Assembly (NCBI RefSeq): GCF_000340215.1
Contig: NW_006921539.1
Coordinates: forward strand, 2,366,507 to 2,430,506
Origin: Pseudocercospora fijiensis CIRAD86
Lineage: Eukaryota; Ascomycota; Dothideomycetes; Mycosphaerellales; Mycosphaerellaceae
Length of the DNA: 64,000 bases
Direction of reading: 5' to 3'
In this document: positions 61,101 to 63,591 of the stretch, one piece after another
Position numbering within the stretch: the stretch's first letter is position 1
Layout of the letters: every line of letters starts with the position of its first letter
The notes under the pieces: model-generated
Told to the model about the DNA's origin: nothing
Seen by the model: the letters and a program-made list of their open reading frames with translations, nothing else
Databases searched by the model: none
Program-made: the position numbers and the translations under genes

Positions 61101-61151
61101 TTTTCTACAATTATATTTGCAAAGAGAATAGCCCACGTCAACCAATCAGCT
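55148..61151. other. Gene-poor region, about 6 kb
   Basis: I find no protein gene I can support. Open frames on both strands (for example 56355-56975 and 60044-60565, plus) lack domains, signal peptides or coding-like splice structure. The part next to the C2H2 start should contain its promoter and a long 5' UTR. Simple repeats: TAGGG x4 (55790-55812), CTGTG/TGTGC run (56122-56150), AGATCC run (56377-56396). The base composition is not strongly AT-shifted, so this is not an obvious RIP block. Unrecognised non-coding RNA or decayed genes cannot be excluded. Confidence 0.45.
55790..55812. repeat. (TAGGG)n short tandem repeat
   Basis: Four TAGGG units plus TAG. It resembles, but is not, the fungal telomere hexamer TTAGGG (one T short). 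Confidence 0.9.
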
Positions 61152-61304
61152 GCATTCGTGGTTTAGTGGTGAGTTCTCAACCCATCATCCACGTCGACGC
61201 CAGTAGGGTTCTAACAGTGTCACGTTACCACAGGTAAAATTAGCCGTTGCCATAGAAATTACCGCATCCTCGGCTAGCCCCGGGTTCGATTCCCGGCGAA
61301 TGCA
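61152..61304 (+). tRNA. tRNA-Gly(GCC) with a spliceosomal-type intron in the D-loop and a canonical anticodon-loop intron
   Basis: Exonic parts are 61152-61168, 61234-61252 and 61270-61304, together 71 nt, the normal length of tRNA-Gly. The acceptor stem GCATTCG pairs 7/7 with CGAATGC, with discriminator A. The D-arm GTTT-AGTGGTAAAAT matches the yeast tRNA-Gly(GCC) arm. The anticodon stem is AGCCG/CGGCT, with loop TTGCCAT and anticodon GCC at 61249-61251. The T-arm is CCGGG-TTCGATT-CCCGG. The canonical intron after position 37 is 61253-61269 (17 bp). A second insertion, 61169-61233 (65 bp), interrupts the D-loop and has mRNA-intron features. A box (TGGTTTAGTGG, 61159-61169) and B box (GGTTCGATTCC, 61283-61293) are intact, and a T9 run follows. 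Alternative: an inactive tRNA gene disrupted by an insertion. Confidence 0.9.
61169..61233 (+). other. Spliceosomal-type intron inside a tRNA gene
   Basis: Begins GTGAGT, has CTAAC at 61211-61215 and ends TTACCACAG; the branch A lies about 19 nt before the acceptor, as in mRNA introns of this genome. It falls directly after the A box, between D-loop G residues. Its ends are ambiguous by one base because G flanks both junctions. Confidence 0.75.
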
Positions 61305-61319
61305 CAATACTAGCAAGTC

Positions 61320-61328
61320 TTTTTTTTT
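61320..61328 (+). terminator. RNA polymerase III terminator (T9)
   Basis: Nine consecutive T on the coding strand, 15 bp after the tRNA 3' end; the usual fungal Pol III stop signal. A second T5 run follows at 61333-61337. Confidence 0.85.
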
Positions 61329-61786
61329 GCATTTTTGGCAGTCTCTAAGCATTGGTATCGCCTAAGCCTAGCAAAGTATTGAGATTCACCTTTTGATCGT
61401 TTACAGGCTTCTAGAAAGCCTCGTAGCTGATGCATTCTGTGATTTTTGCAATGTGCTGAACGCCAAGACTTTAGTGCCAAGTCGGGTAAATGTTCGCCGA
61501 GCACTTACACCTTTCGACTCTTTCGCTTTATACCTTGCCCTATATAACATCGCAAAGCATTTAAGATGCGAATACTGCGTCCAGCTGGTGTATAAACCTT
61601 CTTGACAGGCGTCATTTGGTATCAGCAGCTGCGACGAGAATTTGCATGCCAAACTCGGCGCAATCTCCAGCTGCAGAGGCTTGACATCAGCCGCTGCAGC
61701 CTTGCATCTTCGATGAGAACGACTTATCTTCTTCGTGCAAAATCTCCAAAGGATCGGCAACGGAAACATCATCAGTCTGATTGGAC
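61329..61786. other. Spacer between tRNA and HET-domain gene
   Basis: About 0.45 kb, no gene supported. Should contain the promoter of the HET gene. Confidence 0.4.
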
Positions 61787-63591
61787 ATGCCTGAATTCAA
61801 GCATGAACCTCTCGCGGATCCCAATCATCAAATACGCCTCCTCCAGCTCCCGGCATCAAAATGGGGCGGCGGCATGCATCTACAGCTGAGCACATGGGAT
61901 CTCAGAAAAGCCCCTCCATACAGCGCGATTTCCTACACATGGGGCCCAGCAGGCTATCCGACTCGAAGCCTGACCATTAATGGACTGAACATGGAAGTCC
62001 GTCGGAAGTGCCGCTTCGCATTGTTGCAAGCTCGACTGCGCTGCCCGGGAGACTATGTCTGGATCGACTCCATCTGCATTGACCAAGACAATGTAGGCGA
62101 GAAAGGTGTGCAAGTCGCTATGATGTTTGACATCTACAAGCGTGCAAGACAAGTACTTGCTTGTATCGGCGAGAGCAGTGAGAGTAGCAGACGGCTCGCT
62201 GTAGTGGCCAATATTATCGGCCACATGCGAATGAAGCACAACCTTTTCAAAGATCTAGTCTCGATACCGGAGGCATCTGGTGCACTTGTGAGCTTGCCCT
62301 TAATAATGGTCCTGCGACGCCTAGGCAAAGAAGTCATGCGTCAGCTTAACCAAGATCTGGTAGCTATGAGCGAAAGAGGGTACTGGCACAGGCTGTGGAT
62401 CGTGCAGGAAATTGCCGCTGGAGAAGCAAAAGTCCGTGTGCTTTGCGGCACTGATATGATCTCGCCAATTGGACTCTATCTGCTGACGAGACATCTGGAT
62501 GGACCTGGGTACTATCGAGACCCTTCGAGTCGATTGTTTGATCAGATCGTGACCTCTACAGCCTACACTCGGCTGTCAGCGAGGAGCTTGGATGATATCT
62601 TTATTGACTATGTCGATGCTAGATGCTCCGACGCTCGCGACAAGATTTACGGTGTCCTGGGTCTTGTCGATTGGAAGCGCTACGGTCTGGGACCGTTGAT
62701 GCCTGACTACACCACGTCAACATGGATGCTCGCATTGCAGCTGATCAAGTATACACGTAGCATACGTTTGCTGTGGGCTTTGGACATCTCTGTCCACACA
62801 CCAGAGATGCATGAACTCGTGCGTTCGAGATCGCCGCTGCTGCAGCATTCCCGGCCACCATCGATGTCGTCGCCACAAGGCTACTGCCTGCACGACAGAT
62901 TGGGCCGTGGGCGGAACTTGGTGGCCAAGATCTAATCAACGGCGATCAGCGTCTGTCCCTCAGCTCTATAGACATTGCATACGACAGCAGACCGAATCCA
63001 GGCAAGAAGAGAGCTCAAAATGGCACGATGATGGCTTGGGAAGCAATGCGTGAACAGCTTGATGTGTCCTCTGACCTCTTGCCCAAACCTTTATACGTCG
63101 ATCAGGAGATTGCTGCATTTGTCTGCGCTTCTATCTTGCCGGGAGACTACATGGTCGAAGCTGGCTCCGAAGACGTATATTTAGTCATACGAAAAAGTGA
63201 GAGCGTCGAACACAAACACGATGTGATAGGACAAGCTTTGGTAGTCAATGGTTACAGACTCGCCAGGGGGACACATCCTGCATGGCTCAGTGATCCTAAG
63301 CTGAAGACGTTCGTCAATGAATCAGGTCCTGCTTCGCATCGTCTCTGCTCGAAAATACCATCTGAGCCACTAGAATCATTTTGGGCTGATACGAAAATTC
63401 GCTGGACTCCGGAAGATGCTGTGTTGCTGGCAGGACAAGACATGCTACCGAATCGCGAGGTGCGAGACATTAACGGCAAGTTCGCTCGCTTGACAACAAG
63501 GACGCTCATCGAGCCCGTTGGTGCTATCACTGTGGACCGACTGGTTGATCTCTGCACGGAGTGCAAGAAACCGAGACTGTTCCCAAAGTGA
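61787..63591 (+). CDS. HET-domain (heterokaryon incompatibility) protein, frame broken near 62815-62850
   Basis: HET proteins trigger cell death on non-self fusion in filamentous ascomycetes. The N-terminal HET domain is clear: PPYSAISYTWGPAGYPTRSL, GDYVWIDSICIDQDNVGEKG, QVAMMFDIYKRARQVLACIG, YWHRLWIVQEIAAGEAKVRV and DARDKIYGVLGLV. This frame continues to ALDISVHTPEMHELV and would stop at 62935 with unlike sequence. Another frame takes over at about 62820 (FEIAAAAAFPATIDVVATRL) and is open to TGA 63589-63591, with DYMVEAGSEDVYLVIRK and RTLIEPVGAITVDRLVDLC. No intron of sensible size joins them, so a frameshift or small deletion is likely; the usual central PSWVP-type region is also missing. 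The start is the ATG at 61787; the TTG codon upstream is not a start. About 600 codons in all, normal for the family. Confidence 0.75.

What the first reader, a model, noticed from the sequence alone, without database searches (positions are those of the whole stretch)
61152..61304. tRNA-Gly(GCC) gene interrupted in the D-loop by an mRNA-type (GT-AG) intron
Seen: removing 61169-61233 and the short anticodon-loop intron gives a perfect 71-nt tRNA-Gly(GCC) with a fully paired acceptor stem. The removed 65 bp starts GTGAGT, has CTAAC 19 nt before the end and finishes CACAG, exactly like the protein-gene introns in this window. Known: nuclear tRNA introns normally sit after position 37 and are cut by the tRNA endonuclease; ectopic D-loop introns are known from archaea and some red algae. 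mRNA-type introns in a Pol III gene are known for U6 snRNA in some fungi. Dothideomycetes also carry mobile introner-like elements. Inference: an intron inserted into a tRNA gene, by reverse splicing or as an introner-like element, leaving a Pol III transcript that may need the spliceosome. I know of no described case in a fungal tRNA.
Basis: partly seen in the sequence, partly recalled or inferred. Interest (0 to 1): 0.92.

Follow-up and report, generated by a model that had tools for sequence, protein, structure and literature searches.

The report
tRNA genes split by mRNA-type introns
At least 15 tRNA genes of this fungus, including both copies found of one glycine tRNA, are interrupted by short inserts that carry the start, branch-site and end signals of protein-gene introns, so the spliceosome, the machine known for splicing mRNA, likely has to cut them out before these tRNAs can work.

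Summary
Window 61152-61304 reads as a 71-nt tRNA-Gly(GCC) once a 65-bp GTGAGT...CTAAC...CACAG insert in the D-loop and a 17-nt anticodon-loop intron are left out. It is not a lone oddity. A second Gly(GCC) locus (L032) has an intact D-arm but a different 52-bp GT...CTAAT...AG insert in its T-arm; both loci give the same 71-nt tRNA, and no uninterrupted copy was found in the 74-Mb assembly. In all, 17 tRNA genes (15 firm, 2 weaker) carry 18 or 19 such inserts of 49-66 nt, in acceptor stem, D-arm, T-arm or just before the anticodon arm. Eight inserts can be bounded by an uninterrupted sister copy alone, and all eight allow GT...AG. No bulge-helix-bulge signal and no repeat family is seen; 15 of 15 control loci never become a tRNA by any single deletion. 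Best reading: spliceosomal introns in Pol III tRNA genes of a Pseudocercospora-like fungus. Splicing itself is inferred, as no RNA data were at hand. None of ten library searches listed a described case. An introner origin is not supported.

The parts
61142..61149 (+). upstream element CCAATCAG, just before the tRNA
   Evidence: CCAAT lies within 60 nt upstream of 9 of 15 interrupted tRNA genes against 4.3% of 1691 background 60-mers
61152..61168 (+). tRNA-Gly(GCC) exon 1 (acceptor 5' strand to D-loop)
61159..61169 (+). A box TGGTTTAGTGG, its last G being the first base of the intron
   Evidence: sequence; A-box consensus recalled
61169..61233 (+). 65-nt mRNA-type intron in the D-loop, GTGAGT...CACAG
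   Evidence: boundaries from the sister copy L032
61211..61215 (+). predicted branch site CTAAC, 19 nt after the branch A
   Evidence: branch function inferred
61234..61252 (+). tRNA exon 2 (D-loop to anticodon GCC and A37)
61253..61269 (+). 17-nt ordinary tRNA intron in the anticodon loop
   Evidence: ARAGORN
61270..61304 (+). tRNA exon 3 (anticodon 3' strand, T-arm, acceptor 3' strand, A73)
61283..61293 (+). B box GGTTCGATTCC
   Evidence: consensus recalled
61320..61328 (+). run of nine T, predicted Pol III terminator

Best explanation
The tRNA-Gly(GCC) gene at 61152-61304 is interrupted in its D-loop by a 65-bp insert with the signals of a spliceosomal intron, and it is one of at least 15 such tRNA genes in this fungal genome, whose transcripts are likely spliced by the spliceosome. 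Shown by sequence: the inserts, their ends, branch-like sites and lengths (49-66 nt), the tRNA structures that appear without them, sister copies that lack them, and the failure to find an uninterrupted nuclear Gly(GCC) or Asp(GTC) gene in the searches made. Inferred: Pol III makes one transcript (A and B boxes, T-run). The spliceosome removes the mRNA-type intron first, because inserts in the acceptor stem and T-arm would block RNase P, tRNase Z and the tRNA endonuclease, which act on the folded tRNA body. End trimming and removal of the short anticodon intron by the endonuclease would follow. How the introns arrived is unknown; they are unrelated in sequence and sit at different places even in sister copies, which points to many separate gains.
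For: Two Gly(GCC) loci with different inserts at different places give the identical 71-nt tRNA. Boundaries set by uninterrupted sister copies, without any splice rule, allow GT..AG in 8 of 8 (window, L032, L076, L088, L089, L092; L098, L075; L088 and L089 share one insert by descent). In an unconstrained scan of deletions of 30-125 nt, 15 of 15 candidate genes reach 28.5-31.4 while 15 of 15 control B-box loci stay below 24; where one product wins outright (L032, L071, L075, L090, L104) GT..AG is one of 4, 1, 1, 1 and 2 possible boundaries. ARAGORN finds a tRNA in 15 of 15 after removal and 5 of 15 before. Branch A is followed by 10-13 nt in 17 of 19 inserts (a branch site was a search filter for all but L092). 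Paired stem changes between sister copies: L075 CAGGG/CCCTG, whose strand is itself split by the intron, against L076 CTGGG/CCCAG; L088 against L089 likewise. Bulge-helix-bulge core 1 of 19.
Against: No RNA evidence. In L027 and L100 another deletion scores 0.4 higher than the GT..AG one, and ARAGORN calls the same tRNA there with or without the insert, so these two are weak. After removal ARAGORN names another isotype than I do in 4 of 15 (L027, L076, L098, L100), though it also misnames uninterrupted intron-bearing genes here. L096 and L105, and L091 less well, reach tRNA-like scores by deletions that are not GT..AG and stay unexplained. The absence of TTTT in 19 inserts is not significant (1.8 expected, P 0.15). 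L089 has one acceptor mismatch. U6, the Pol III RNA known for introns in fungi, is uninterrupted here.
Confidence: 0.85

Rival explanations
1. These are dead tRNA genes hit by insertions, and working copies exist elsewhere in the genome.
For: Uninterrupted sister copies exist for Ala(AGC), Ala(TGC), Arg(ACG) and Ser(AGA). Odd-position introns in eukaryotic tRNA genes have been supposed to be pseudogenes (PMC4090602, passages).
Against: No uninterrupted Gly(GCC) found: T-arm 18-mer with up to 1 mismatch, one site; 14-mer GTTCGATTCCCGGC, two exact sites, both these genes; D-arm with up to 2 mismatches, 25 sites, of which the 24 others hold no tRNA by ARAGORN. Asp(GTC) 3 of 3 nuclear-type copies found are interrupted. 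Stems are whole, with paired changes; L088/L089 introns differ at 7 of 54 sites while keeping the splice signals and downstream flanks match at 29 of 100.
Confidence: 0.08
2. The inserts are tRNA-endonuclease (bulge-helix-bulge) introns at unusual positions, as in archaea and Cyanidioschyzon, and their GT..AG look is incidental.
For: Introns at D-arm, T-arm and acceptor positions are known there (PMC3978253 and PMC4090602, passages). The same genes do carry ordinary anticodon introns.
Against: The four-pair core is present in 1 of 19 inserts, against 3.9% at random places. GT..AG is allowed in 8 of 8 inserts bounded by sister copies.
Confidence: 0.04
3. The splicing signals were produced by my search: with enough GT..AG choices some deletion turns any B-box locus into a tRNA, or the inserts are assembly errors.
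For: GT..AG and a branch site were filters. A tRNA-like repeat (L024) also came up; I dropped it because its unit already scores 29.0 without any removal.
Against: 15 of 15 control loci never reach 24 by any single deletion, and up to three GT/GC..AG introns turned 2 of 25 loci into tRNAs. Sister copies set the boundaries without the filter. Assembly errors would not end in GT and AG with a branch site at a fixed distance.
Confidence: 0.03

Closest known systems
Spliceosomal introns in fungal U6 snRNA and U3 snoRNA genes
   Same: Short GT..AG introns with branch sites in small structured RNAs. PMC5832005 (passages) calls U3 and U6 the only such RNAs known to be often interrupted; spliceosomal removal has experimental support for U3 in S. 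cerevisiae and N. crassa.
   Different: Here the hosts are tRNA genes, many isotypes, many positions, up to two or three introns in one gene; U6 itself is uninterrupted in this genome.
Ectopic tRNA introns of archaea, Cyanidioschyzon merolae and nucleomorphs
   Same: tRNA genes split in D-arm, T-arm and elsewhere, sometimes several introns per gene (passages).
   Different: Those of archaea and C. merolae rest on bulge-helix-bulge sites cut by the tRNA endonuclease; nucleomorph ones given there are 3-24 nt and of unknown mechanism. Here no such motif, but mRNA-type signals.
Ordinary eukaryotic tRNA introns at 37/38
   Same: Most of the same genes also carry one, 10-80 nt (14 of 15).
   Different: The mRNA-type inserts lie elsewhere and have splice-site and branch signals.
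Introner-like elements of Dothideomycetes
   Same: Gains of spliceosomal introns in the same fungal class (PMC4457414, passages).
   Different: No repeat family among the tRNA introns. In that paper Pseudocercospora fijiensis served as a negative control for introner-like elements.

Membership tests
Spliceosomal (U2-type) intron | GT..AG ends | tested here: met
   18 of 19 GT..AG, one GC..AG in L077 (the ends were a search filter). Filter-free: 8 of 8 inserts bounded by sister copies allow GT..AG.
Spliceosomal (U2-type) intron | branch site at a short fixed distance from the 3' end | tested here: met
   19 of 19 have YTRAY; 10-13 nt after the branch A in 17 of 19, 18 and 19 nt in two. A branch site was a filter for all but L092.
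Spliceosomal (U2-type) intron | removal as a lariat by the spliceosome | not testable with these tools
   no RNA data
tRNA-endonuclease intron | position 37/38 in the anticodon loop | tested here: not met
   none of the 19 inserts lies in the anticodon loop; separate short introns do
tRNA-endonuclease intron | bulge-helix-bulge at the junctions | tested here: not met
   four-pair core in 1 of 19 (L076), random rate 3.9%
Introner-like element | several near-identical copies in the genome | tested here: not met
   window region matches only itself; among the 19 only L088/L089 are alike, others no better than shuffles. Genome-wide copies of the other introns were not searched.
Introner-like element | target-site duplication | tested here: inconclusive
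   0 to 4 nt of sliding at the junctions, GGT at both Gly(GCC) inserts; also expected from the splice sites themselves
Pol III tRNA gene | B box and T-run terminator | tested here: met
   the B box was the search handle, so met by construction; TTTT 3-53 nt after the gene in 15 of 15

The most novel reading that the evidence does not exclude
In this fungal lineage the spliceosome has become an obligatory tRNA-making machine: mRNA-type introns have repeatedly colonised tRNA genes, up to three in one gene, and every nuclear copy of essential tRNAs such as Gly(GCC) and Asp(GTC) must pass through the spliceosome before end trimming and before the tRNA endonuclease removes its ordinary intron.
Probability: 0.7. 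Interest if true: 0.96.

Novelty: new variant of a known kind. Interest (0 to 1): 0.93.

Why it matters
Nuclear tRNA splicing and mRNA splicing are treated as separate systems. Here several essential tRNAs would depend on both, tying translation capacity to the spliceosome and requiring it to work on short Pol III transcripts whose first exon gives as little as 4 nt to the tRNA (L026, L090). Standard tRNA finders miss or misname these genes, so tRNA sets of related fungi may be incomplete. Sister copies with and without the intron make intron gain testable in genes free of coding constraints.

Tried and rejected
ARAGORN on the window found no tRNA and Rfam none at gathering threshold; a lax Rfam scan gave three spurious matches near the T-arm. 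RF00005 over the genome scored only 63 of 3083 candidates, so B-box patterns were used; one search listed 100 of 109 sites and 100 of 198 (mostly repeats), so the tRNA counts are lower bounds. Introner origin, bulge-helix-bulge structure and avoidance of TTTT were tested and not supported. Loci L091, L096, L099, L101 and L105 look like parts of tRNA genes, but no set of up to three introns gave a tRNA.

Rows dropped. From the uninterrupted genes that I count (22): L007/L008 (mitochondrial-type cluster), L011 (looks bacterial), L015 (doubtful origin) and the ARAGORN call in L027. For the upstream element, 32 rows of uninterrupted genes were printed (10 with CCAAT, 6 with CCAATCA); without those 13 rows it is 10 and 6 of 19.

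Literature. Ten searches ran in the open-licence PMC library, no preprints; their listings showed no spliceosomal intron in a nuclear tRNA gene. Eight papers were seen as passages only.

Full report
WHAT IS THERE. The window lies in contig C8 of a 73.9-Mb, 30-contig genome. A kexin gene of the window is 91% identical to that of Pseudocercospora fuligena, the next full-length named hits being at 67% or lower, so this is a Pseudocercospora-like fungus. At 61152-61304 the + strand reads GCATTCGTGGTTTAGTG, then 65 bp GTGAGT...TTCTAAC...CCACAG, then GTAAAATTAGCCGTTGCCA, a 17-nt anticodon-loop intron, and TCGGCTAGCCCCGGGTTCGATTCCCGGCGAATGCA. Without the two inserts this is a 71-nt tRNA-Gly(GCC) with all acceptor, anticodon and T-stem pairs formed. 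An A box (61159-61169) and B box (61283-61293) are whole, and nine T follow at 61320.

A SECOND COPY. The uninterrupted D-arm has one exact site in the genome. It belongs to L032 (C3, minus strand), also a Gly(GCC) gene but broken elsewhere: CCCCGG, then 52 bp GTGCGT...TTCTAAT...AAAAAG, then GTTCGATTCCCGGCGAATGCA. Its anticodon intron differs (14 nt), yet the mature 71 nt are identical to the window gene. The 14-mer GTTCGATTCCCGGC has exactly two exact sites, these two, among 78 sites with up to one mismatch. The T-arm 18-mer with up to one mismatch has one site. The 24 other D-arm-like loci hold no tRNA by ARAGORN. So no uninterrupted Gly(GCC) gene was found; a copy with a strongly different T-arm would escape these searches.

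HOW WIDESPREAD. With B-box patterns and fetched loci I looked for tRNAs that appear only when GT..AG stretches are left out. With one intron: Gly(GCC) window and L032; Asp(GTC) L026 (acceptor stem), L075 (T-stem), L076 (D-loop); Ala(AGC) L088 and L089 (D-loop); Ala(CGC) L090 (acceptor) and L108 (end of the D-arm); Arg(ACG) L098 (D-loop); Arg(CCG) L027 (acceptor 3'); Ser(AGA) L071 (T-stem 3'); Ser(TGA) L104 (9/10); Leu(CAG) L100 (acceptor 3'). Ala(TGC) L092 (D-loop) was seen by eye and bounded. With up to three introns, 2 of 25 loci gave tRNAs: Glu(TTC) L077 with two (29.3) or three (29.1), one of them GC..AG, and Thr(AGT) L112 with one in the T-stem 3' strand. That is 17 genes and 18 or 19 introns. 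L027 and L100 are weaker, since ARAGORN calls the same tRNA there with or without the insert; 15 genes are firm. I recognise 22 uninterrupted nuclear-type genes. Both numbers are lower bounds. Among genes found, all copies are interrupted for Gly(GCC) 2 of 2, nuclear-type Asp(GTC) 3 of 3 and Ala(CGC) 2 of 2, and the single genes found for Ser(TGA), Glu(TTC), Thr(AGT) and, weaker, Leu(CAG). Ala(AGC) is 2 of 3, Ala(TGC), Arg(ACG) and Ser(AGA) 1 of 2 each.

IS IT MORE THAN CHANCE. First, boundaries from sister copies, with no tRNA model and no splice rule: 7 of 7 exact comparisons leave two to four listed cuts, GT..AG among them (six, one), and L075 against L076 gives an eighth; L088 and L089 share their insert by descent. 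Second, all deletions of 30-125 nt: 15 of 15 candidates reach 28.5-31.4, the range of ordinary tRNAs here (27.6-31.4), while 15 of 15 control B-box loci never reach 24. Where one product wins outright (L032, L071, L075, L090, L104), GT..AG is one of 4, 1, 1, 1 and 2 boundaries; by hand, at 1/256 per boundary, about 7e-12. Against this: in L026 and L108 the GT..AG cut ties with other products; in the six D-loop genes many cuts tie, which the sister copies settle; in L027 and L100 another deletion scores 0.4 higher; and of six unresolved loci in the same call, L091, L096 and L105 reach 28.1-30.1 by deletions that are not GT..AG, L077 25.9. Third, ARAGORN finds a tRNA in 15 of 15 after removal and 5 of 15 before. 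It names another isotype than I do in 4 of the 15 (L027, L076, L098, L100), as it also does for uninterrupted genes such as L014 and L022.

WHAT KIND OF INTRON. Lengths are 49-66 nt; donors are GTGAGT, GTATGT, GTACGT, GTAAGC, GTTAGT and the like. All 19 hold YTRAY, with 10-13 nt after the branch A in 17 and 18-19 nt in L108 and the window gene; a branch site was a filter for all but L092. Two introns best placed in the window's PhoD-like gene show the same signals with 14 nt after the branch A, but are 107 and 126 nt (placed by open frame and domain order, not by RNA). A bulge-helix-bulge core is present in 1 of 19, random rate 3.9%. TTTT, which would stop Pol III, is absent from all 19, but only 1.8 were expected (P 0.15), so this proves nothing. 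Apart from L088/L089 the inserts are unrelated (best other pair 20, shuffles mean 20.6), and the window region has no second match.

ARE THE GENES ALIVE. Stem changes come in pairs: L075 CAGGG/CCCTG, whose 5' strand is itself split by its intron, against L076 CTGGG/CCCAG; L088 CTGGG/CCCAG against L089 CCAGG/CCTGG. L089 has one acceptor mismatch. The L088/L089 introns differ at 7 of 54 sites, none in donor, acceptor or the CTAAC, while flanks match at 62 of 100 upstream and 29 of 100 downstream. CCAAT lies within 60 nt upstream of 9 of 15 interrupted genes and 10 of 19 uninterrupted ones (10 of 32 before dropping rows), against 4.3% of 1691 background 60-mers.

MECHANISM. Shown: anatomy. Inferred: one Pol III transcript; spliceosomal removal first, since inserts in the acceptor stem and T-arm prevent the fold that RNase P, tRNase Z and the tRNA endonuclease use; then end trimming; then removal of the anticodon intron. 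The order and the enzymes rest on general knowledge of tRNA maturation, not on a call. U6 is uninterrupted in both copies found, so introns are not a habit of all Pol III genes here.

COMPARISON. [quoted passage not shown] PMC4090602 and PMC3978253 (passages) describe odd-position tRNA introns in archaea, Cyanidioschyzon and nucleomorphs, handled as bulge-helix-bulge or undefined sites, and call them rare in eukaryotes. tRNAscan-SE 2.0 (PMC8450103, passages) looks for noncanonical introns in archaeal tRNAs; the stem 'spliceosom' does not occur in its text. The listings of ten library searches showed no spliceosomal intron in a nuclear tRNA gene; preprints and most subscription papers were not searched.

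VERDICT. Observation confirmed; interpretation supported and widened to at least 15 genes; introner origin not supported; proof of splicing in RNA is missing.

Noticed in passing
L091, L099, L101, L096, L105: Loci that look like parts of tRNA genes (for instance an Ala-like acceptor with G3-U70 in L096) but could not be resolved with up to three introns; L091, L099 and L101 may carry more introns.
   Followed up: partly
L094 (C3:1162430): tRNA-Pro(AGG) with a 72-nt anticodon intron that itself contains GTACAT...TTCTAAC...AATAG; perhaps an mRNA-type intron inside an ordinary tRNA intron.
   Followed up: no
L011 (C1:2118758-2118830): An intronless tRNA-Arg(CCG) that looks bacterial by eye (recalled resemblance, not searched).
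   Followed up: no
L007/L008 (C1:2533484-2534733): Cluster Asp-Ser-tRNA(tca)-Ile-Ser of mitochondrial type inside an 11.9-Mb contig; perhaps a nuclear copy of mitochondrial DNA.
   Followed up: no
G000, many contigs: Several dispersed families with B boxes and tRNA-like ends (GGTTCGAATCCTCTATTAGCTATCC..., GGTTCGAGTCCTACACTAGC..., GGTTCAATTCCTATACTAG...), probably tRNA-derived SINE-like repeats.
   Followed up: no
L118, L119 (C5:4776035, C9:2205067): Two full-length U6 snRNA genes with equal scores and no intron.
   Followed up: no
window 61142-61149 and upstream of other tRNA genes: A CCAATCA element close upstream of many tRNA genes of this genome, interrupted or not; possibly a tRNA promoter element.
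   Followed up: partly
window 61781-62935: An ORF with a HET (heterokaryon incompatibility) domain lies just downstream of the tRNA gene.
   Followed up: no
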